From assembly GCF_000017165.1 (NCBI RefSeq), contig NC_009634.1, positions 124,001 to 188,000 on the forward strand: a DNA stretch of 64,000 bases, read 5' to 3'. The position numbers and the translations under genes were made by a program. Position 1 is the first letter of the stretch; each line of letters starts with the position of its first letter. Origin of the DNA: Methanococcus vannielii SB (lineage in GTDB: Archaea; AGJL01; Methanococci; Methanococcales; Methanococcaceae). The notes under the pieces were generated by a model. That model was not told the origin of the DNA. It did not search any database and saw only the letters and a list, made by a program, of their open reading frames with translations. Positions 1 through 63,018 of the stretch are shown piece after piece.

Positions 1-158
1 TTGTAATTCGTATACTTGTAGGACCAATCACTCTTTTTCATTAATTCAATTACTTTTTTAATATCCGTTTTTTCGTCAAAAGTAATTTCTTTATTGCTAC
101 TAACAGACCATTTGAATGGAAACATAAATATGTGGTAACTTTTTATATCGTCTGACAT
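1..158 (-). CDS. Partial hypothetical protein, third gene of the cas6 operon (C-terminus beyond window edge)
   Basis: The gene starts with ATG at 158 and runs off the left edge, so only about 52 residues are visible. The N-terminus reads MSDDIKSYHIFMFPFKW, a hydrophobic/aromatic strand followed by a charged region. It lies 24 bp downstream of the DHH-like gene on the same strand, with cas6 before that, so the three are probably one operon. I do not recognise the family. The pairing with the DHH-like gene and the position next to cas6 suggest a CRISPR-linked accessory role, which is inference only. Confidence 0.6.
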   Translation of the reverse strand, partial: MSDDIKSYHIFMFPFKWSVSSNKEITFDEKTDIKKVIELMKKSDWSYKYTNY

Positions 159-182
159 GTTAAACCCCTCAATAATTATATC

Positions 183-935
183 TTAATTCTTTTCGTTGAT
201 TTTTGAAATAATATCATTTAATAACTGTTCCGTTATTTTTTCGCCAGATATTCCAAAATAGCCCTCCCCTTGTCCACCAAAGTAAACTTTATCATTCAAA
301 ATTTCAGAATATTTTTTTCCTAACAATTTAGCATGTTTTCCATAGTATGTGAGGTTATTTTCCGTATAAATTAAAAGTTTTTCAAATGGGTAGAGTCGAT
401 CGACAACCGGTGAGAATTTGGATGTTTTTGATTCAACCAAAATTATTCCATCAATTGTTTTTTTATCTTTTATCGATTCAACTGCCAATTTTTCGTCTTC
501 ATCCGTCACCCCTTGCATCATTCTATCAAGTTTTCTGATTTCTGCTATTTCTTCTTTTGTAGCACCAAATTCAATCATCTTTGGAATGTAACCTTTGTCG
601 TTTTCCGCAATCAACAGCTGTTCTCTCGTTAATTTTATATTCAATAATTTTGCAACCTGCTCAATAGCAGCTGGAAAATCAGCTTTTTCATTATGATGAT
701 CTATTTCAATTAAATTTTCAATTTCCATATTTGAATCGTTTGTAAGTTCAACCGAGACCAAAGTAGTATTTTTATCATTCAACTTTATTTCAATGTCGTA
801 ACTGGCGATATAATCGCTTAACTTTGCGCCCCATGATAAATTTTTATCAATATATTCGATATTATTTTCGTCTAAAATATTTCTAATTTCGACCATTTCA
901 AGGTCGTGTCCGCCCAATAAGAATAGGTATTTCAA
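183..935 (-). CDS. DHH/DHHA1-like predicted phosphoesterase next to cas6
   Basis: This 250-residue protein starts with TTG at 935 behind a GAGGAGAA ribosome binding site. It opens with a hydrophobic strand and GGHDLEM, has a central IDHHN motif near residue 80, and ends with a glycine-rich FGGQGEGYFG stretch. The order resembles DHH phosphoesterases, where a DHH motif helps bind metal and a C-terminal DHHA1 lobe carries a GG-rich substrate loop. The protein is shorter than usual for that family and the full set of N-terminal aspartates is not obvious, so the assignment is tentative. It sits between cas6 and a partial unknown gene on the same strand. A role in nucleotide or cyclic-oligonucleotide turnover linked to CRISPR is possible but unproven. 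Confidence 0.55.
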   Translation of the reverse strand: MKYLFLLGGHDLEMVEIRNILDENNIEYIDKNLSWGAKLSDYIASYDIEIKLNDKNTTLVSVELTNDSNMEIENLIEIDHHNEKADFPAAIEQVAKLLNIKLTREQLLIAENDKGYIPKMIEFGATKEEIAEIRKLDRMMQGVTDEDEKLAVESIKDKKTIDGIILVESKTSKFSPVVDRLYPFEKLLIYTENNLTYYGKHAKLLGKKYSEILNDKVYFGGQGEGYFGISGEKITEQLLNDIISKINEKN

Positions 936-964
936 ATTATTCTCCTCGTTTATCCGTTTTAATT

Positions 965-1615
965 TTAATTAACTTTTTTAACCGTTCCAAATCCCCTAGA
1001 AACGCTTTTTCCAAGCCCCAAATAATTAGGAATACTAAAATTACACTCAAAAGTCCCCTTAAATCCAACCATGTTTTTATTTTTAAATTTAACAGTTATT
1101 TCGTCCAAATTCAAGTCTGACAATATTCTTTCAGAAACAGTGTGTTCAAATCCTTTTGCCATTGAAAGAATATTTCCTGCCAAAATTCTTTTTAAAAGCT
1201 CTTCTTTTTCAAAGTTATCAGAATCGGCATATTTTTTAAAATTTTCCTGATTTATCGGCATCCAAGGTACTTTAAATTCGTAAGTATTCATTTTTGATAT
1301 TCCAAACTCTGCTTTTTCATTTATCACTTCGATTTTAGAAATATAGGTTTTTCCATCCACGTCAATGGAATCTTCGTTAACTGCGGTTTCTTTTAATAAA
1401 ATGGCCCCTTCAGAAATTCCGACTAAATGGGGAATTTTATCGATTACCTTATACTGGATTTTTGGATAGCCGTACAAAAATGATTTATTTTCGTGATTGT
1501 GAAACATCAATTCGCTTGAATACTTGTTTGCAAAGTAACCCCTAACTTTTTGGCTATCGCTCATTTTAAGTCTTAAATCCGGATATTTTATAATTAAATA
1601 ATCTAAAACTGCCAT
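965..1615 (-). CDS. cas6: CRISPR-associated endoribonuclease Cas6
   Basis: Cas6 cuts the CRISPR transcript inside each repeat to release guide RNAs. The 216-residue protein ends with the glycine-rich motif YLGLGKSVSRGFGTV (about residues 198-212), the hallmark of the second RAMP/ferredoxin-like fold in Cas6. Length fits the family. ATG at 1615 is preceded on the minus strand by a GAGGAAT ribosome binding site. It diverges from cas1, which starts about 120 bp away, and heads a minus-strand operon with the DHH-like gene and the partial gene at the window edge. The array repeat can form a short stem followed by an 8-nt ATTGAGAC tail, as expected for a Cas6 product. Confidence 0.87.
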   Translation of the reverse strand: MAVLDYLIIKYPDLRLKMSDSQKVRGYFANKYSSELMFHNHENKSFLYGYPKIQYKVIDKIPHLVGISEGAILLKETAVNEDSIDVDGKTYISKIEVINEKAEFGISKMNTYEFKVPWMPINQENFKKYADSDNFEKEELLKRILAGNILSMAKGFEHTVSERILSDLNLDEITVKFKNKNMVGFKGTFECNFSIPNYLGLGKSVSRGFGTVKKVN

Positions 1616-1738
1616 AAAATTCCTCTTATGATTGTTAAATTCGATTTAAATCTATAAATTTTTTAAATGTCGTTAAATATATAATTATTGGAATTTTTTT
1701 ACAGAACTGCTTTTTTTTAACTAAGGGAGGATGAAAAT

Positions 1739-2707
1739 TTGAAGTGTGTAGTAAATAAGTACGGATCTAAAATATCGAAATCTGGAAACAGGATCGTGAT
1801 TGAAAGTAAAGACGGGGTTTTTGAAAGTTCAATAGAAAATATAGAACAGGTTTTGATATGCGCACCTTCATCGATTACAACGGAGTTTTTGGAGCTTTCG
1901 GTGAAAAACAACGTTGATGTTGTGTTATTAAATAAATATGGAAAACCGGTTGGTAGATTTTTTGGAAATGGTATTGAAAAAACTGCTTTAAAACGAAAGC
2001 AGCTTAAATTAACAGAAAATTGGGCAGGAATTTCTATTATAAAGGAATTTTTATCCGAAAAAATTGAAAACCAAATTGAACACTTGAACAATATTTCAAA
2101 AGAAAACATTTCAGAGGGTAGTCTTTCTAAATCCATTTCTAAAATCAACAAGTCGAAAAATATGCTTTTGGAAATTAAGGGGGAAAATATCGCTGAAATT
2201 AGGGATCAAATACAGGGACTCGAAGGTTCAGTAAGCAAAATTTATTTCAGGGTGCTTTCAAAATCGCTTCCGAAAAAATACCAATTTAACGGGCGAAGCA
2301 GAAAACCTGCAAAAGACTACTTCAATTGCATGTTAAATTACGGATACGGAATGCTTTATTCGGAAATTGAAAAGATATGCATAATTTCTGGAATTGATCC
2401 CACAATTGGAATTTTACATACTGATGGGCAGAACCGGAAATCTTTTGTTTTTGACTACATTGAAAAATATAGAAATATTATAGATAAAATCGTTTATGAA
2501 TCGTTTTTAAATGAAACTATCAAAGAAAATTTCTTTAAAGAAGTTGAAAGAGGATATTTGCTCGATGAAGAGGGTAGAAAACATATTATTTCAAAGTTTA
2601 ACGGTTATTTAAACATGAAGGTTAAAAAATACGGTAAAACATATACTATGGCGGATGTTATGCAGAAAGATGCATATAAACTCTCAGAACGAATTTTAAG
2701 GAGTTAA
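1739..2707 (+). CDS. cas1: CRISPR integrase Cas1
   Basis: Cas1 is the metal-dependent integrase that inserts new spacers, working with Cas2. The 322-residue protein has the expected N-terminal beta domain and C-terminal helical domain. Candidate metal ligands are Glu162 (in GLEGSVSKIYF), His227 (in GILHTDG) and Asp239/Glu242 (in FDYIEKYR). The start is TTG at 1739, eight bases after GGGAGG; an upstream ATG at 1731 is followed at once by a stop and is not used. cas2 follows six bases after the stop codon, so they are an operon. The gene diverges from cas6. Confidence 0.95.
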   Translation: MKCVVNKYGSKISKSGNRIVIESKDGVFESSIENIEQVLICAPSSITTEFLELSVKNNVDVVLLNKYGKPVGRFFGNGIEKTALKRKQLKLTENWAGISIIKEFLSEKIENQIEHLNNISKENISEGSLSKSISKINKSKNMLLEIKGENIAEIRDQIQGLEGSVSKIYFRVLSKSLPKKYQFNGRSRKPAKDYFNCMLNYGYGMLYSEIEKICIISGIDPTIGILHTDGQNRKSFVFDYIEKYRNIIDKIVYESFLNETIKENFFKEVERGYLLDEEGRKHIISKFNGYLNMKVKKYGKTYTMADVMQKDAYKLSERILRS

Positions 2708-2713
2708 GAGAGA

Positions 2714-3004
2714 ATGATTTATTTTTTGATATATGATATATCGGGAAACAAGGCACGAAATAGGGTCATAAATTACTCAAAAAATATCGGGTTATATCGA
2801 ATTCAGAAAAGTGTTTTTTCTGGAAACACGTCGATAGAAAATATTAACGTTTTAAAAGAAAAAATACGTAAAACTATCGATTTAGAGACTGATTCAGTCT
2901 TTATTTTTGGAGTTAGTAAAGATCAGATGGATAAATTTGAAGTAATTGGGCAGGATTTTGACCGGGAATTGATAAACGGAGAAATTACTACAAAATTCCT
3001 GTAA
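2714..3004 (+). CDS. cas2: CRISPR endoribonuclease/adaptation protein Cas2
   Basis: Cas2 dimers scaffold the Cas1 integrase complex. The 96-residue length and the N-terminal strand MIYFLIYDISGNKARNRV, with the conserved Asp after the first strand (Asp8), match the family. The middle KNIGLYRIQKSVFSGN region is the typical second strand and loop. The ATG lies six bases after the cas1 stop, behind GAGAGA. It is the last cas gene before the leader and array. Confidence 0.94.
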   Translation: MIYFLIYDISGNKARNRVINYSKNIGLYRIQKSVFSGNTSIENINVLKEKIRKTIDLETDSVFIFGVSKDQMDKFEVIGQDFDRELINGEITTKFL

Positions 3005-3423
3005 ATTTATCGGATTTAGCAATAGTAACAAATATCAACCCGTTATTTCAAAAACAGGGCGTTTATATTAGTAATAATATATACTTAAAAAATAATAACG
3101 TGTAGTTGGGAGAATTATTACATAATTTAATTCAGGGGTTTTTAAAAGGTATTCTTACATAAAAACAGTTTTTAACCAAAAAATCTGCTAACAAAGTGTT
3201 TATATCCATATTTATCTTTAAAAAATATGTAAAGCAAATCAAAAACTATATATAATTTTTCCGCTCATAAATTAAGTTAAATAAAAAGCAAATACATACC
3301 CGAAACAAGAATAAAGTCTTTAAAATGTGATTTTCTAAAAAGACGTTGTTTTAAAATCTAACCGATTTTAAAGGGCTTTTGAAGAAATGAAGCATTTTTA
3401 GAAAAATAAAATTTTTGCTAAGG
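3005..3423 (+). promoter_or_regulatory. Putative CRISPR leader between cas2 and the array
   Basis: This AT-rich stretch of about 420 bases lacks a convincing open reading frame and directly precedes the first repeat. Array polarity supports a leader here: the degenerate repeat is at the far (right) end. A TATA-like element, ctatatataattttt, lies near 3247-3261 and would start transcription about 140 bases before the first repeat. A GC-containing inverted segment near 3040-3065 (cccgttatttcaaaaacaggg) could end cas2 transcription. Confidence 0.55.
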
Positions 3424-3680
3424 ATACGAAACGTTGATCCATCAAAACAAGGATTGAGACCATTTGTAGCATAACAGACGTATTGATTACCTCTATCATA
3501 CGAAACGTTGATCCATCAAAACAAGGATTGAGACTCTTTGAATATACCATCTGATGAGTCAGCTAAGATTATACGAAACGTTGATCCATCAAAACAAGGA
3601 TTGAGACAACGGATATCGATTATATAAGACGATTATATATTGAATACGAAACGTTGATCCATCAAAACAAGGATTGAGGC
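3424..3680 (+). CRISPR. CRISPR array, four 37-bp repeats and three spacers
   Basis: Repeats lie at 3424-3460, 3498-3534, 3571-3607 and 3644-3680. Spacers are 3461-3497 (37 nt), 3535-3570 (36 nt) and 3608-3643 (36 nt). Each repeat begins ATACGAAACGTTGATCC and ends GGATTGAGAC. The last copy ends GGATTGAGGC, the degenerate terminal repeat that sets transcription left to right. TTGATCC and GGATTGA can pair (with two G-U pairs) around an AT-rich loop, leaving ATTGAGAC as the 8-nt handle expected after Cas6 cleavage. None of the three spacers matches another part of the window by eye. Confidence 0.97.
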
Positions 3681-3862: not shown

Positions 3863-5650
3863 TTAAGGTTGGTTGAAATATTCAGACGGCAGCAGTATTT
3901 TGGATACGTCTTCTTTACAGAAATCTACTTTTTTTACATCCGAAACCCATTCTTTATCCTTATTTACATAATATACTGAAATATCTTCTTCTGTGATTGG
4001 ATTATTCGGATCCAAAACCAGTTCCTGTAATCGTTTCAAAAGGTATTCGCTATGGGTTTCAATTATCATTTTTGAGCTTTTGTTGTCATTCAATGTTTTG
4101 TCAACAAAAAGATCTGCAAGATTGCCGTGGACTGCAGGGTGCAGATGTAGTTCGGGCTGTTCGATTAAATACATATTTTCCCCAGAATCTTTATTTTTAG
4201 GGAAATTTACCAGAATCATGGTTAAAATTGGAAGAATTTGCGAAATTCCATATCCCATGTCCACTAAATCATCAGCCTGTCGTGTAGTATTCGCAGATTT
4301 GATACTGAAGTTTCCGCTATCATTGTAATCTTCAATAATCAAGTTGCATCCAAGATTTGTCCTTAACCATACATCGATTTTGTGAAAATCATCCGAACCA
4401 TTCAATTTATCCAGGATGTATGCAGCATTTTCTCCAAGCGGGCCAACTGAATCGGGCACATAATCTATTTCAGGATATATCCGTTCGGGAACTTTTCTAA
4501 ATGGCCCGATATAATTAACATTGATATTATCAAATTCATTTTTTAATTTATCTATTATTATATGATAAATCCCTAAATTAATGCCTTGATTCAAAAACTG
4601 TGCCAGAATGTCAGGGTTTTCATTGAATATCTGTATAAAATCTCCATATTTATCTTTAAATGACTCGAGATTCCTGCATGCAAAGATTGAAAGAACACTT
4701 AAGTCTACGCCAAAAATATGTTTTATGAGCTCTTCATAAAATGAATGGATTTTTTCCATTTTATTTGGAATTTCGAAATTTTTTAATAATTCATACGAAC
4801 TTGATTTTTCAACTGCAGGCAAAAATCCATAAAACGTTAAATCATTTAAATTACATGAATTACCAAGTAATTCTCCACTTTTCGTCTTTTCAGAGTATCT
4901 AATAATTAAATTATTATTAGATCGTAATTCAAATTTCGAAACATTCATTTCATCATTTAATGAAAAAATTAAGTCAATGTTTTCCAGAGCTTTTTTTATA
5001 TTTTTAATTGGGCTGTCCAAACATCTTCTTGATAACCTATCAATATTGTATATCGCGGAATCCAGAAGTTCAGAATATCGTCCCATGACTTCGTCGAGAT
5101 TTTCAACATCTTCAGAAAAAATTTCCAATAATTTGGCCAGTCCGCGGTTACCTAACTCTTCAAATCGATATATGGTATCAATGTGATGAATTTGGTCGTA
5201 TAATTCAAAAGGATTATTCAATATCATTTTTTTTGTGGTGTGGCCCATCGGATTTTTTTTAAGTAATTCATATTTATCACAGTCCGGCAGTAGGCCCCAA
5301 GATTCTAAATTATTAACAGTATCCCGAATAAATGATTCAATAGCGTTTAAAATATCCATACTTAACAAATTAAGTTTTAAATTAAATTCAATTTCGTTTC
5401 CATTTTGAAAATGAGGTATACTTTGAAATCTACCGTAATCAATTAAAGATCCGTTAAATCTTAATGGAATATCACATTCATCGTCGTCTGTAAATGTCTG
5501 CCCCATTACTGCAAGAAAGCGTAGTAAACTACTTTTACCAGAATTATTTGGTCCGATAAATATAGTTATTGGTTTTAAATCAATGTTTCCAGTATATTTA
5601 AATGATTTAACATTTTTTAATCCAAAAGATAAAATTTCTGCTTCAGACAT
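3863..5650 (-). CDS. AAA ATPase of the OLD/RecF-like (AAA_15/21, DUF3696-like) group
   Basis: The protein has a Walker A motif GPNNSGKSS at residues 33-41 and, near the C-terminus, a Walker B-type YLIEQPELHLHP followed by an IIETHSEYLLKRL switch region. This is the ABC/SMC-like arrangement of OLD-family and AAA_15 ATPases, which often act in phage defence. I see no TOPRIM nuclease domain and no partner nuclease next to it. The frame is open to an ATG at 5716 (617 residues), but ATG at 5650 (595 residues) places the protein start just before the first strand, FGLKNVKSF, and follows GGGATGA. An odd AAAGGAGG lies at about 5699-5706, between the two candidate starts. It stands alone on the minus strand between the array and the phosphoribosyltransferase island. 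Confidence 0.8.
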   Translation of the reverse strand: MSEAEILSFGLKNVKSFKYTGNIDLKPITIFIGPNNSGKSSLLRFLAVMGQTFTDDDECDIPLRFNGSLIDYGRFQSIPHFQNGNEIEFNLKLNLLSMDILNAIESFIRDTVNNLESWGLLPDCDKYELLKKNPMGHTTKKMILNNPFELYDQIHHIDTIYRFEELGNRGLAKLLEIFSEDVENLDEVMGRYSELLDSAIYNIDRLSRRCLDSPIKNIKKALENIDLIFSLNDEMNVSKFELRSNNNLIIRYSEKTKSGELLGNSCNLNDLTFYGFLPAVEKSSSYELLKNFEIPNKMEKIHSFYEELIKHIFGVDLSVLSIFACRNLESFKDKYGDFIQIFNENPDILAQFLNQGINLGIYHIIIDKLKNEFDNINVNYIGPFRKVPERIYPEIDYVPDSVGPLGENAAYILDKLNGSDDFHKIDVWLRTNLGCNLIIEDYNDSGNFSIKSANTTRQADDLVDMGYGISQILPILTMILVNFPKNKDSGENMYLIEQPELHLHPAVHGNLADLFVDKTLNDNKSSKMIIETHSEYLLKRLQELVLDPNNPITEEDISVYYVNKDKEWVSDVKKVDFCKEDVSKILLPSEYFNQP

Positions 5651-5764
5651 ACACTTTTCATCCCGGTTATACTTATTTAGTATCCAAATCCTATGATTGT
5701 CCTCCTTTAAAAACATTGTGTTGTTTTCTTACGTTTTAAAATTTTTTTAAAATTTTTTTCGACA

Positions 5765-5815
5765 ATTTATATATTATTTTTTTAAAAATCATTTTAATCC
5801 AAACATTTATATATT
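5765..5815. promoter_or_regulatory. Two TATA-type promoters, one probably for each direction
   Basis: Two near-identical tttatatatta elements lie at about 5766-5776 and 5806-5816. The right one has an A-rich BRE-like flank and would place a plus-strand start near 5832-5840, exactly where the GC-rich hairpin RNA begins. The left one, read on the minus strand as atatataaatt, fits a promoter for the ATPase gene. Assignment is by spacing only. Confidence 0.5.
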
Positions 5816-5832
5816 ACGTCAACATATGTAAA

Positions 5833-5893
5833 GTTCCTGCATTGCGAGGGGCTTTGCAGGCAATTCGCCCGGTTGGGGCGAATTGAAACCTGG
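5833..5893 (+). ncRNA. GC-rich two-hairpin RNA candidate with CRISPR-repeat-like 3' part
   Basis: The stretch is GC-rich in a strongly AT-rich genome. Hairpin one pairs CCTGCA (5836-5841) with TGCAGG (5855-5860). Hairpin two is a perfect 10-bp stem, CAATTCGCCC (5861-5870) with GGGCGAATTG (5876-5885), closed by a 5-nt GGTTG loop. It is followed by AAAC, so the segment ends GCGAATTGAAAC, like many archaeal CRISPR repeats. A TATA element about 25 bases upstream fits transcription starting at the first hairpin. It could be a free small RNA or the structured 5' leader of the following phosphoribosyltransferase gene (ATG at 5955). Confidence 0.6.
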
Positions 5894-5954
5894 ATTTTTA
5901 ATTATTTTTTAAAGTAATAGCGAATGCTATGTAAATTTTAAAAGGGGGTAAATT

Positions 5955-6521
5955 ATGGAAAATTTTTCAAAAGTTGAATACCTAAATAATGTAAAATGTT
6001 CTTTTATTTACGACTATTATTCTGAGAATAGATTTTCGTCAATTAGCGGAGACTATCAAAAAATATGAACACTTGTTGATGAATTTAAAAATGGTAAAAA
6101 TACAGAAGTAGTTTCAAATTTGGTTTCAGATGTGCTTTTGAAGAATTTTGGTAAAAATTACCTTAAAAAATCAGTGTTTATTCCAATTCCGGCGTCTACG
6201 AAATTTAAAACTAAAAATAGGTATGAATTATTTTCTAAACTTGTTTCTAAAAGAACTGGGGTTTATAATGGATTTAACCTAATTGAAAGGACGAGAAATT
6301 CGTTTCCAAAACACGGGGGTGGATTTGGGTGCAGCGAATATTTTGCACTGGATTTTAAGGTTTCGAGTTTAAAAAATAGACCTGTAATTTTATTTGATGA
6401 TCTGTATGTTTACGGTGAAACTATTGATTTTATTTCGAGAAAATTAAAAATGAAGGAGGTAAACCATGTAGAATGTTTGTTTTTAGGTAAAACTATCTTC
6501 AATGATTTTTCAAATTCTTAA
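5955..6521 (+). pseudogene. Phosphoribosyltransferase paralogue A, interrupted by an in-frame TGA
   Basis: The frame starts with ATG at 5955 behind AAAGGGGGT and continues to 6521, but codon 38 (6066-6068) is TGA. Both sides of the stop align with paralogues B (6858) and C (8532): after it come EFKNGKN, VFIPIPAST and an ILFDD block. The PRPP-binding loop, ILFDDFICSGNT in B and ILFDDIITSGKT in C, is ILFDDLYVYGET here, so the usual TSG core is lost. A degraded loop plus a stop suggests a decaying copy. Restart at TTG 6120 would give 133 residues. The stop is unlikely to encode selenocysteine because the aligned residue in copy B is lysine. Confidence 0.75.
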
Positions 6522-6560
6522 TATCAATTTTAAATTATAGAATTAATTTGGTGGGAATTT

Positions 6561-6824
6561 ATGGTAGATTCAGTAAAATATACGGTCCATATTGATTATA
6601 ATAAAAATTTGGTTTCAATTCATTCTACAAATTGTTTAGATTACGTAAATTCAAAGAAAAACGGGTTTAATGAAAGTTTATGGCTCGGGCCCTTTGAAAC
6701 GTTCGAAGAGGCTTGTATAATTTCAGAAAATCATACAGAACATTTAGGATGTTGTAAAAAGTGTATTTCTATCGCAGTTCAAGACATTATTTGTTTTAAA
6801 GGGCTTAAGCTGAAAAATAACTAA
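6561..6824 (+). CDS. Hypothetical protein, 87 residues, cysteine-containing
   Basis: The ATG at 6561 follows GGTGGG with good spacing. The product starts with a beta-strand-rich part (VKYTVHIDYNKNLVSIHS) and contains ESLWLGPFETFEEAC and a C-terminal HLGCCKKCI cluster that could bind zinc. I do not recognise the family. It lies between phosphoribosyltransferase copies A and B on the same strand and may be part of that island's operon. No membrane segment is visible. Confidence 0.7.
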   Translation: MVDSVKYTVHIDYNKNLVSIHSTNCLDYVNSKKNGFNESLWLGPFETFEEACIISENHTEHLGCCKKCISIAVQDIICFKGLKLKNN

Positions 6825-6857: not shown

Positions 6858-7397
6858 ATGAACAATTCATTAATTAATCGGATAATAAATGGGAATAATT
6901 ATTTATTAGTTTCTGATTATTACAATTTAGATGAATATTACGACATTGAATTTTCAGATTTAAGACTAAAGACAATTATTTCTGAATTTAAACATTGTAA
7001 ATATCAAAAAGAAGCTGCTAACCTTGTTTCACGAGTATTAATTGAACGCTACGAAGATAATATTAATAAATACTGTTTTGTAACAGTTCCTTGTTCAAAC
7101 CGGTTAAAAACTGAAAAAAAATATAATGGATTTTCTAAAATAGTTTCTTCAATTACTGGAATGGAAAACGGGCACGATTTTATAATTCGATATAAAGATT
7201 CAAAACCAAAATATGGGTTTGGTTTTGAATCTTTAACTTACTATTCAATTGAATTAGATATTAAAAAAATTAACAACAAAAAAATAGTTTTATTTGATGA
7301 CTTTATTTGTTCTGGAAATACAGTCAACTACATTAAAAAAAGATTAAGTTGGTTTTGTAAAGATTTAAACTTTGTATTTTTAGAAAAAAAAGTTTAA
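6858..7397 (+). CDS. ComF-like phosphoribosyltransferase paralogue B
   Basis: The 179-residue protein belongs to the type I phosphoribosyltransferase fold by its PRPP loop KIVLFDDFICSGNTV (about residues 147-161): two acidic residues followed by a small-residue loop. An upstream strand, FVTVPCSNRLKTEKKYNGFSK, is shared with copy C and resembles ComFC proteins (VPxxxxRxxxRGFNQ-like). The N-terminus shares YYNLDEYYD-like aromatic residues with copies A and C. ATG at 6858 follows AAAAGGGGGT, the same ribosome binding site style as the other copies. Known substrates for this fold are PRPP-linked; here the substrate is unknown. Likely cytoplasmic. Confidence 0.8.
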   Translation: MNNSLINRIINGNNYLLVSDYYNLDEYYDIEFSDLRLKTIISEFKHCKYQKEAANLVSRVLIERYEDNINKYCFVTVPCSNRLKTEKKYNGFSKIVSSITGMENGHDFIIRYKDSKPKYGFGFESLTYYSIELDIKKINNKKIVLFDDFICSGNTVNYIKKRLSWFCKDLNFVFLEKKV

Positions 7398-7766: not shown

Positions 7767-8243
7767 ATGAAAGAATTTTTCAAATGCAATGTATCGGAAC
7801 TTGAAGAGTCATACAATAACCGTTTATCCGCATTATTTCGTGGAATTACAGAAATACGTTTTAAATCATATTTAAAAGAAGACGTAATTAAATCGGAAAA
7901 AACTTATGCTAATGATGAATTTTCGGATGGTCGACTCAAAGGGTGCAATATTGAATTTAATGTAGATATAAGTAATTTACCAGTATTTCATGCACATGGC
8001 ATTAATAAAAATGGATTAAATGTAGAAATATTCATAGCGTTAATGGATATGCCTGATGAAGAATACTTTACAATTGCATTTTCAGAAAAAGAGAGAAGTT
8101 TCCTATTTTATACGGATGGATTTAGGATAGTAATGGACCATATTAAAGTTCTAAACTCTGAAAAAAGAACATATGTTGATGAAATTAGCGGAAAAGTTTA
8201 CGAAAATGCAGCCGATATTTTTATTGAAAATGGATATTATTAA
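7767..8243 (+). CDS. Hypothetical protein, 158 residues
   Basis: ATG at 7767 follows AAAGAGGT. The product is acidic, without signal peptide or membrane segment, and I see no known motif. Visible features are an N-terminal helix (ELEESYNNRL), a central strand-rich part (IEFNVDISNLPVFHAHG) and FYTDGFRIVMDH near the end. It lies between the zinc-ribbon gene and phosphoribosyltransferase C. About 290 bases separate it from the next gene, so it may end a transcript. Confidence 0.7.
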   Translation: MKEFFKCNVSELEESYNNRLSALFRGITEIRFKSYLKEDVIKSEKTYANDEFSDGRLKGCNIEFNVDISNLPVFHAHGINKNGLNVEIFIALMDMPDEEYFTIAFSEKERSFLFYTDGFRIVMDHIKVLNSEKRTYVDEISGKVYENAADIFIENGYY

Positions 8244-8531: not shown

Positions 8532-9146
8532 ATGGTAAATTTTGCAACACATGGGTGGGTAAACGGACATTTTTGTTCTACAATTTTTTACTACTACCCA
8601 ATAAGATCATTTTCAAATACTAATGAATTAAATTCAAAAATAAGAAATAAAATATATGATTTTAAAGAGGGTCGTAATCCAAACGAAATTGGTGAACTTG
8701 TGTCAAGCGCATTAATTAGTACGTTTGGAAAAGATAAGTTAAGAAATTGTACTTTTGTTACGGTTCCTGCATCATCCGTATTGAGGACAGAAAAAAGATG
8801 TAAATCATTTTCTAAGATAGTTTCTTCAATTACTGGAATGGAAAATGGATATAATTTTGTAAAACGGTGTAAGGACTCAAAACCAAAACATATTACAGGA
8901 TGCGAATCAGAAAATTATTATTCATTGTTCATTGAAAAGAACTTAGTTATGAATAAACGAATAATTCTTTTCGATGATATAATTACATCAGGGAAAACTA
9001 TTGATTTTATTTCTAAACGTTTAAAATGGTACTGTAAAAGCGTTGATGTAGTTGGTTTGGGAAAAACCGTTTCAAGAGGTAGTAATGAATACCTAAATCA
9101 GAACTGCTTGGGCAACGCATTAGTGAGGGCAAAATATGGTTTATGA
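8532..9146 (+). CDS. ComF-like phosphoribosyltransferase paralogue C, coupled to dprA
   Basis: The 204-residue protein has an intact PRPP loop, RIILFDDIITSGKTIDF (about residues 144-160), and the upstream CTFVTVPASSVLRTEKR strand shared with copy B. ATG at 8532 follows GAGGGGT. Its stop codon (9144-9146) overlaps the dprA start at 9136 by 11 bases, so translation is coupled and the two products probably act together. In bacteria ComF-type proteins and DprA both serve natural transformation, and pairs of this kind have also been proposed in surveys of immune systems. Copy C is the best preserved of the three and probably the functional partner of DprA. Confidence 0.82.
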   Translation: MVNFATHGWVNGHFCSTIFYYYPIRSFSNTNELNSKIRNKIYDFKEGRNPNEIGELVSSALISTFGKDKLRNCTFVTVPASSVLRTEKRCKSFSKIVSSITGMENGYNFVKRCKDSKPKHITGCESENYYSLFIEKNLVMNKRIILFDDIITSGKTIDFISKRLKWYCKSVDVVGLGKTVSRGSNEYLNQNCLGNALVRAKYGL

Positions 9147-10194
9147 TTTAATCGAATATATCGTTTTTTCAATAATATATTCTGAAATTGAAAAGCGTGG
9201 AAAATACAGTATTCAAACGTATTCGGCTTCAGCCCTTCAAAACATGTTTAAAACGTCTCTTGAATCAAATACAAACATTTTTAAGTGTACTAATGAAGAA
9301 TTGGCCATTTTAATGGATAAAATAATGAATAATTTAAAAGAATCACAAAAATCGAAAGTTTTGGAAATTTATAGACTACTTGAAAATTCAAAAATTAAAA
9401 ATAAACTCTTTAAACGAGCGTTAGAAGAATATTCTATGTGTATTGAAAACAAAATCTCATTAATGCCATATGAATCTTTAAATTATCCTGAAAAATTAAG
9501 AAATATTAAAGATTCACCGTTTTTATTATACTACATCGGAAATTTCCCTGTTGAAAAAGATTTAGAAAAGTCCATTGCAATTGTTGGTTCAAGAGATTCT
9601 GTAAAATTATCAGAAGATATTTCGTACAATACTGCTTTTGAACTATCTAAATCAAAAATATGGAACATTAGTGGACTTGCACTTGGCATTGACTCTTTTG
9701 GACACTTGGGTTCAATCGATTCAGAGGGATATACTGGTGCAGTTTTAGGTCAGGGGCTTTTAGATCCGATTTTTCCAAAAGAAAATATGGAACTATCCGA
9801 AAAAATTTTGAAAATGGGCGGATTTTTGGTTTCAGAACTTCCACCATCAACTAAAATCGATGGAATTTTTTTAATATTAAGGGATAGACTTCAAAGTGCA
9901 TTGACTGACTCAGTATTTGTGGTTCAGACTGGAAAAAAAGGAGGAACGTTAAATACCGTTAATTATGCAGTTAATCAAAGTAAAACAGTATATGTTTTTG
10001 AACCTACGGAAATTTTAGATGGATTTGAAGGTAATTTAATACTTTTAAATAAATTAGAAATCCCTGAAAAATTTAAGGTTTCGAAAAAAAACATTGAAAA
10101 AATAAAATCGGTAAAAAATGTTTTAGAACTTAAAAAAGAAGTGGGTTTGGTATGTTTTAAGGTACAGATTACAATGGATGAATATTTTTGTTAA
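9136..10194 (+). CDS. dprA: DprA/Smf-family DNA-processing protein
   Basis: The C-terminal two thirds form the DprA Rossmann-like (SLOG) fold: SIAIVGSRDS (about residue 154), the conserved SGLALGIDSFGHLGSI, LVSELPPS, and the nucleotide-loop region GKKGGTLNTVNYAVNQ. About 130 N-terminal residues are helical and unlike the usual SAM-like domain. Known DprA proteins bind single-stranded DNA and load RecA; SLOG relatives also sense or cut nucleotides. ATG at 9136 overlaps the end of phosphoribosyltransferase C. The gene closes the island; a non-coding stretch follows. Confidence 0.85.
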   Translation: MVYDLIEYIVFSIIYSEIEKRGKYSIQTYSASALQNMFKTSLESNTNIFKCTNEELAILMDKIMNNLKESQKSKVLEIYRLLENSKIKNKLFKRALEEYSMCIENKISLMPYESLNYPEKLRNIKDSPFLLYYIGNFPVEKDLEKSIAIVGSRDSVKLSEDISYNTAFELSKSKIWNISGLALGIDSFGHLGSIDSEGYTGAVLGQGLLDPIFPKENMELSEKILKMGGFLVSELPPSTKIDGIFLILRDRLQSALTDSVFVVQTGKKGGTLNTVNYAVNQSKTVYVFEPTEILDGFEGNLILLNKLEIPEKFKVSKKNIEKIKSVKNVLELKKEVGLVCFKVQITMDEYFC

Positions 10195-62799: not shown

Positions 62800-63018
62800 A
62801 TGAAAAATTCAGATAATGAAGATTTAGTTTTTGATAATCGAATAGTTCCAAATTCTAAGAGGGACTTTACAACCGTTGGAATAAACTGTCCAAATTGTAA
62901 TTTTTTTATAAAAGTTTCAATTTCAGAACTGTTAACTTCTGAAATTACCTGTCCGGCATGCAATAATACTATGAAGTTAGAAAAGCCTAAATATATAGAT
63001 TTTGAAAACTTTAAATGA
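62800..63018 (+). CDS. Small zinc-finger protein, 72 residues
   Basis: ATG at 62800 follows AGAGGC; the frame is open to 62740. It holds two CxxC pairs, INCPNCNFFIKVS and ITCPACNNTMKLE, that form one zinc ribbon. I do not recognise the family. It sits between topA and a convergent small membrane-protein gene. Confidence 0.72.
   Translation: MKNSDNEDLVFDNRIVPNSKRDFTTVGINCPNCNFFIKVSISELLTSEITCPACNNTMKLEKPKYIDFENFK

What the first reader, a model, noticed from the sequence alone, without database searches (positions are those of the whole stretch)
5833..5893. GC-rich two-hairpin RNA with a CRISPR-repeat-like end
In an AT-rich genome a GC-rich block with a perfect 10-bp stem and a TATA box at the right distance is a strong RNA signal. 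The second hairpin plus ATTGAAAC tail is built like an archaeal CRISPR repeat and lies 2.2 kb from an array whose repeat ends ATTGAGAC. It could be a solitary Cas6 substrate, a CreA-like guide RNA, or a leader of the phosphoribosyltransferase gene.
Basis: partly seen in the sequence, partly recalled or inferred. Interest (0 to 1): 0.72.

Follow-up and report, generated by a model that had tools for sequence, protein, structure and literature searches.

The report
Structured RNA leader before toxin-like genes
A methane-making archaeon has a short, GC-rich double-hairpin stretch just after a promoter-like box and just before a row of genes resembling a phage-defence toxin-antitoxin set; it looks like a real structured RNA, but its likeness to a CRISPR repeat is little more than eight letters.

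Summary
At 5836-5889 lie two predicted hairpins, the second a perfect 10-bp stem, 56% GC in a 29% GC window: the strongest fold and GC island of the 64 kb. A BRE/TATA-like box (5801-5815) puts the inferred start at the foot of hairpin 1; two T runs follow. The genes downstream are a ShosTA-like set: three ComF-like PRTases (the first broken by a TGA) and a DprA-fold ShosA, not found in 35 other genomes of the order. I read the element as the 5' leader, or short attenuated RNA, of that operon.

CRISPR likeness: ATTGAAAC equals the last 8 nt of the genome's main type I-B repeat (100 exact copies; 133 kb away), not of the nearby array (ATTGAGAC). Beyond the handle there is no similarity (p 0.17), the CreA-type seed test failed, and another 10-bp stem in this window carries ATTGAAAC one base off the same place. 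A Cas6 substrate or CreA-like guide is not excluded but unsupported.

No homologous RNA was found, so function rests on anatomy. Most likely an orphan structured leader; moderately interesting.

The parts
5801..5815 (+). BRE/TATA-like promoter box (AAACATTTATATATT); inferred start about 5834-5838
   Evidence: Exact match to AAANNTTTATATA at 5801-5813; start distance is recalled archaeal spacing, not measured
5836..5860 (+). hairpin 1 (CCUGCA/UGCAGG with inner GC/GC stem); refolds if more upstream sequence is included
   Evidence: fold
5861..5885 (+). hairpin 2, perfect 10-bp stem, 5-nt loop
5882..5889 (+). ATTGAAAC, identical to last 8 nt of the genome's main I-B CRISPR repeat; ATTG lies in the stem
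5895..5910 (+). two T runs (T5, T6), possible archaeal-type termination site; not a bacterial-type terminator by the scan
   Evidence: sequence; one search found 0 terminator-like sites in 5600-6000
5955..6521 (+). ShosT/ComF-like PRTase 1, in-frame TGA at codon 38, probably decaying
6858..7397 (+). ShosT/ComF-like PRTase 2
8532..9146 (+). ShosT/ComF-like PRTase 3, overlaps shosA
9136..10194 (+). ShosA/DprA-like protein
   Evidence: ShosA E 2.4e-52, DNA_processg_A 1e-48

Best explanation
The element is the 5' end of the transcript of a ShosTA-like operon. RNA polymerase starts at about 5835 (inferred), and the first 50 nt fold into stable hairpins, followed by T runs where part of the transcripts end (inferred). 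The products would be a short, stable 65-75 nt RNA and a minority of read-through mRNAs for the PRTases and ShosA; the leader thus protects the 5' end and keeps the toxin-like genes low. Shown: sequence, predicted fold, promoter-like box, gene order and gene families. Inferred: start, termination, read-through, regulation.
For: Strongest fold and GC island of the window, z -3.9 to -4.7. BRE/TATA-like box at the right distance. T5 and T6 runs at 5895-5910. Same strand as the genes, with 65 bases between its end and the first ATG, and no match to AAANNTTTATATA (up to 1 mismatch) between the two. Downstream genes match ShosT (E 7.8e-10, 7.4e-8, 3.3e-6 for PRTases 3, 2, 1) and ShosA (2.4e-52).
Against: No transcript data. 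No homologous RNA in what was searched, so no covariation. Hairpin 1 refolds when upstream bases are added. The single 150-nt leader stretches tested for two distant PRTase/DprA-type loci do not fold unusually (z -1.4 and -1.0), so the RNA is not shown to travel with the system. The scan found no bacterial-type terminator, and the T runs start 9 nt after the stem. PRTase 1 is broken.
Confidence: 0.48

Rival explanations
1. An ectopic, degenerate CRISPR repeat: a Cas6b substrate or CreA-like guide whose ATTGAAAC becomes the 5' handle and whose 'spacer' (5890 on) ends in the T-rich terminator, guiding the I-B Cascade to a promoter.
For: Handle identical to the main I-B repeat; a full I-B effector set with its own cas6b is present, and a second cas6b lies in the window; AUUG ends the 3' arm in element and main repeat. 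H. hispanica CreA has one repeat-like sequence and a T-rich end (PMC8501985 section 12). Among stems of 6 bp or more in the 211-kb sample only this one has the handle in exactly this register.
Against: No similarity to the repeat beyond 8 nt (p 0.17) and no second repeat downstream (p 0.63); seed test 8 of 10 at best, p 0.34; no exact seed match elsewhere in the intergenic region; AACAAG before the handle absent. ATTGAAAC occurs 33 times outside arrays in the 211-kb sample (36 less 3 at the array end), and two more stems there carry it within 3 bases of this register, one of them a 10-bp AT-rich stem at 62919-62946 (minus) of this window, one base off.
Confidence: 0.08
2. A free-standing small RNA acting by base pairing, for instance on 23S rRNA: 5853-5876 is antisense to the 23S rRNA, 24 nt with 3 mismatches and one G-U.
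For: 0 of 500 dinucleotide shuffles reach the score; 0 to 2 of 500 in six further tests (two shuffles, three scorings), and reversed, complemented and reverse-complemented rRNA score clearly lower.
Against: Genome-wide the same match has E 1.5; the target was chosen after seeing the hit; the rRNA stretch is itself self-complementary; no Rfam family reached its threshold at the element.
Confidence: 0.08
3. The inverted repeat acts as DNA, an operator between the divergent ATPase gene and the PRTase operon, bound by a dimeric regulator or by ShosA.
For: Perfect 10-bp inverted repeat in a divergent intergenic region.
Against: It lies downstream of the inferred start; an RNA hairpin explains it as well; no second full copy in the genome.
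Confidence: 0.14
4. A relic without present function: leader of an operon whose first gene is already broken.
For: TGA at codon 38 of PRTase 1 and, by eye, an altered PRPP loop; no conservation.
Against: PRTases 2 and 3 and ShosA are intact open frames; hairpin 2 carries no mismatch.
Confidence: 0.22

Closest known systems
ShosTA (PRTase/DprA toxin-antitoxin, PADLOC ShosT/ShosA)
   Same: ComF-like PRTase directly before and overlapping a DprA-fold protein; both match the ShosTA models
   Different: Three PRTase paralogs with small unknown proteins between them and a structured leader; an archaeon
CreTA of haloarchaea (CreA guide RNA, type I-B)
   Same: 8-nt handle identical to the host's I-B repeat, followed by a T-rich end; toxin-like genes near
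   Different: No repeat similarity beyond the handle, no seed match, strong GC hairpin, protein rather than RNA toxins
The two CRISPR repeats of this genome seen here (main I-B repeat and DR64)
   Same: AUUG (main) or AUUGA (DR64) ends the 3' arm of the weak predicted hairpin, then AAAC or GAC
   Different: Repeat folds are no better than shuffles, and AACAAG precedes the handle; the element has a strong stem and no AACAAG
Structured mRNA leaders and attenuators (kind, no named family)
   Same: Hairpins at the inferred 5' end of a transcript, then a T-rich stretch, then an operon
   Different: No known ligand or conserved relative

Membership tests
ShosTA | DprA-fold ShosA gene | tested here: met
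   PDLC03961 E 2.4e-52
ShosTA | PRTase ShosT gene next to it | tested here: met
   PDLC03962 E 7.8e-10 for 8532-9146, frames overlap; modest scores, but the best PADLOC hit for all three PRTases
ShosTA | Toxicity neutralised by ShosA | not testable with these tools
   needs expression assay
CRISPR repeat / Cas6b substrate | Sequence similarity to a host repeat over its length | tested here: not met
   only ATTGAAAC aligns, p 0.17 main, 0.64 DR64
CRISPR repeat / Cas6b substrate | 8-nt 5' handle | tested here: met
   identical to main array
CRISPR repeat / Cas6b substrate | Cleavage by Cas6b | not testable with these tools
   needs enzyme assay or small-RNA sequencing
CreTA (CreA) | Seed pairing (spacer 1-5, 7-11) to toxin promoter next to a PAM | tested here: not met
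   best 8 of 10 in 5717-5889, 34% of 5000 random 12-mers as good; PAM of this system unknown (searches gave no protospacer)
CreTA (CreA) | Small RNA toxin gene in tandem | not tested
   hairpin 1 is the only candidate seen; no test was run
CreTA (CreA) | Cascade-dependent repression | not testable with these tools
   genetics needed
Archaeal SECIS for the TGA of PRTase 1 | SECIS covariance model match in the transcript | tested here: not met
   no SECIS among the 3 matches up to E 10 in 5700-6700; the TGA aligns with R and K, not Cys
Known Rfam RNA | Match to a family at its threshold | tested here: not met
   whole window: only the 4 CRISPR-DR64 repeats; 3 sub-threshold matches in 5700-6700, E 1.7-2.3

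The most novel reading that the evidence does not exclude
A CRISPR-guarded protein toxin operon: a solitary, hairpin-clamped repeat at the head of a ShosTA-like operon is cut by Cas6b, and its RNA, loaded on the I-B Cascade or the Cmr complex, holds down its own promoter, so that loss of CRISPR frees PRTase toxins. It would be a CreA-like guard with a protein toxin outside haloarchaea.
Probability: 0.04. Interest if true: 0.85.

Novelty: new member of a known kind. Interest (0 to 1): 0.36.

Why it matters
It flags a structured RNA without an Rfam family at the head of a ShosTA-like set in an archaeon, within a defence cluster that holds a published CorA/NrN type III-B system. If the leader sets toxin dose, it adds an RNA layer to ShosTA; if the handle is used by Cas6b, it ties CRISPR to a protein toxin. 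Both are testable with one small-RNA library.

Tried and rejected
Homologous RNA by DNA: the 6 other genomes of the genus gave only pieces of at most 34 bases (best E 0.007, 21 bases); no match in phages or plasmids at E 1; none in viral contigs for the handle-bearing arm. Nine viral contigs hold the same stem arms, but with other loops, in three sets of shared flanks, without ATTGAAAC at the stem: I take them as unrelated. Covariance model from the one sequence given twice: 3 of 36 genomes at E 0.5 or below, its own included; the four matches beside the element itself (one each in G007 and G008, two in the own genome) keep the 3' tail or lose many pairs.

Relatives of the PRTases: none confirmed in viral contigs or genome contigs; 1 of 36 genomes, its own, at E 1e-6. 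At E 0.01 20 further places appear; 18 of them lie in open frames of 449-528 aa, which I take to be amidophosphoribosyltransferase (recalled, not tested). Distant relatives (28-30% identity over about two thirds) sit in 1 plasmid and 2 phage records. ShosA: 1 of 36 genomes, its own, at E 1e-5; DprA-type matches in 235 plasmid and 37 phage records, all under 60% identity, three loci looked at; one Clostridia locus, not analysed. ATPase 3863-5716: 2 of 36 at E 1e-20, own included.

Selenocysteine reading of the TGA: rejected. PAM from spacers: the main array gave no match in phages or plasmids. A possible second repeat at 5914 was my idea; it scored no better than shuffles. A tRNA origin of the 24-nt genome matches was my first guess; they are 23S rRNA. 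TGGATT of the would-be spacer recurs on the minus strand at 5796-5801, beside the BRE, but this site has 6 of 10 seed positions. The seed pattern is common: 45 exact places in the genome, 31 with up to 1 mismatch in the window against 12.8 expected. One search also printed an ORF check on 30 of the 45; for minus-strand places it read the wrong position, so I do not use it.

Full report
What is there. The window is bases 124001-188000 of a single 1.72-Mb contig. The length equals, from memory, that of Methanococcus vannielii SB. The Cas10/Cmr2, Cmr6, CorA and NrN-type genes at and beyond its left edge agree with the M. vannielii locus named in PMC10600005 (passages read). Cas6b, Cas1 and Cas2 and the DR64 array follow. 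Between a divergent AAA_15 ATPase gene (3863-5716, minus) and a row of plus-strand genes lies a 238-bp AT-rich gap with one GC-rich block. Folded as 5834-5895 the block gives hairpin 1 (5836-5860) and hairpin 2 (5861-5885, perfect 10 bp), then AAAC. With more flank, hairpin 1 can rearrange and hairpin 2 gains a few pairs below an AAA bulge. It is the best fold and the highest-GC island of the 64 kb, and the only GC-rich perfect stem of 10 bp or more among 11 in a 211-kb sample (2 kb counted twice).

Promoter and end. AAACATTTATATATT at 5801-5815 fits the archaeal BRE/TATA layout (layout recalled; match). The motif is not rare in such AT-rich DNA, so the weight lies in its place, some 20-35 bases before hairpin 1. 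T runs follow at 5895-5899 and 5905-5910. The bacterial-type terminator scan found nothing, which says little if archaeal termination needs T runs rather than a hairpin (recalled).

Genes behind it. Three ComF-like PRTases (PRTases 2 and 1 are 42% and 38% identical to PRTase 3) match ShosT; the last overlaps a DprA-fold gene that matches ShosA at 2.4e-52. A DprA-PRTase pair protects E. coli against phages T7 and lambda, and DprA homologs are antitoxins in shosTA, syrTA and rqlHI (PMC9122126, passage read). PRTase 1 has a TGA at codon 38 and, by eye, an altered PRPP loop; it looks decayed. Neither the PRTases (E 1e-6) nor ShosA (E 1e-5) were found in the 35 other genomes of the order that are held, so the cassette was probably acquired (inference).

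The CRISPR question. The main array, from G000:C1:262821 on, has the repeat GTAAAAGAGCATAATGCATTAGAACAAGCATTGAAAC (100 exact copies in the stretch 262001-282000) and lies next to cas8b-cas7-cas5-cas3-cas6b. Its last 8 nt equal 5882-5889. In the weak fold of this repeat and in hairpin 2 the 3' arm ends in AUUG (in DR64, AUUGA). Against: the repeats fold no better than shuffles, and haloarchaeal repeats and CreTA repeats show no conserved hairpin (PMC9458426, passage). Upstream of the handle the similarity is that of shuffles (p 0.17; second repeat p 0.63). The CreA rule, pairing of spacer positions 1-5 and 7-11 to the toxin promoter (PMC8501985, passages and section 12 read), gives at best 8 of 10 in 5717-5889, which 34% of random 12-mers reach. 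Degenerate repeats are the rule in CreTA, with the first repeat the more diverged (PMC9458426, abstract passage), so the missing similarity lowers but does not end the case. ATTGAAAC occurs 33 times outside arrays in the 211-kb sample. Of the stems of 6 bp or more there, three have it at or near the foot: this one exactly, a 10-bp AT-rich stem at 62919-62946 (minus) of the same window one base off, and a 6-bp stem three bases off. So the coincidence is not very rare; for this I lowered the CRISPR reading from 0.10 to 0.08 and the novel case from 0.05 to 0.04, and moved the 0.02 to the relic reading.

Antisense to rRNA. 5853-5876 pairs with 23S rRNA over 24 nt with three mismatches and one G-U. 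Shuffle p is 0.002-0.006, but blast E against the genome is 1.5, and the stretch was tested because it had shown up. I keep it as a lead.

Comparison. No match by Rfam at threshold, by DNA, by a covariance model built from this one sequence or in viral contigs. The 150 nt before a Phocaeicola PRTase-DUF1273 pair and before the phage Mana dprA-PRTase pair fold with z -1.4 and -1.0, and the 150 nt before PRTase 2, PRTase 3 and the 158-aa gene at 7767 with z 0.9, 1.4 and -0.6. So the RNA is single in its operon and not shown to travel with ShosTA.

Verdict. A real structured element, most likely the 5' leader or attenuated small RNA of a ShosTA-like operon (0.48). Alternatives are a relic (0.22), a DNA operator (0.14), a CRISPR-type RNA (0.08) and a pairing small RNA (0.08). 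I did not see this element in the papers found by my eight searches (listings, plus passages of four papers and one section); that is a limited search.

Noticed in passing
window 1-3680 and G000:C1:117348-124158: Type III-B genes (Cas10/Cmr2, Cmr6) with CorA and NrN-type DHH protein (SAM-AMP signalling type), plus cas6b, cas1, cas2 and a 4-repeat array; agrees with the M. vannielii locus in PMC10600005.
   Followed up: partly
G000:C1:263553-263924 and 269062-269430: The main I-B array carries several spacers twice in the same order, as if part of the array had been duplicated.
   Followed up: no
window 5955-6521: PRTase 1 has an in-frame TGA at codon 38 in a genome thought to read selenocysteine (recalled); the aligned residues are R and K, not Cys, and no SECIS was found.
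   Followed up: yes
window 7193-7235: A perfect 18-bp stem with a 7-nt loop lies inside the coding sequence of PRTase 2.
   Followed up: no
window 62919-62946 (minus): Another 10-bp stem, AT-rich, whose 3' arm runs into ATTGAAAC one base off the register of the element.
   Followed up: no
window 5814-5832: 19 bases just before the inferred start recur exactly inside a coding sequence that looks like a thymidine/AMP phosphorylase at G000:C1:1365667 (E 0.003; name recalled).
   Followed up: partly
window 5796-5801 and 5891-5896: TGGATT near the start of the would-be spacer recurs on the minus strand next to the BRE of the same promoter; only 6 nt, 6 of 10 seed positions.
   Followed up: partly
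window 5853-5876: 24-nt antisense match to 23S rRNA with three mismatches.
   Followed up: partly
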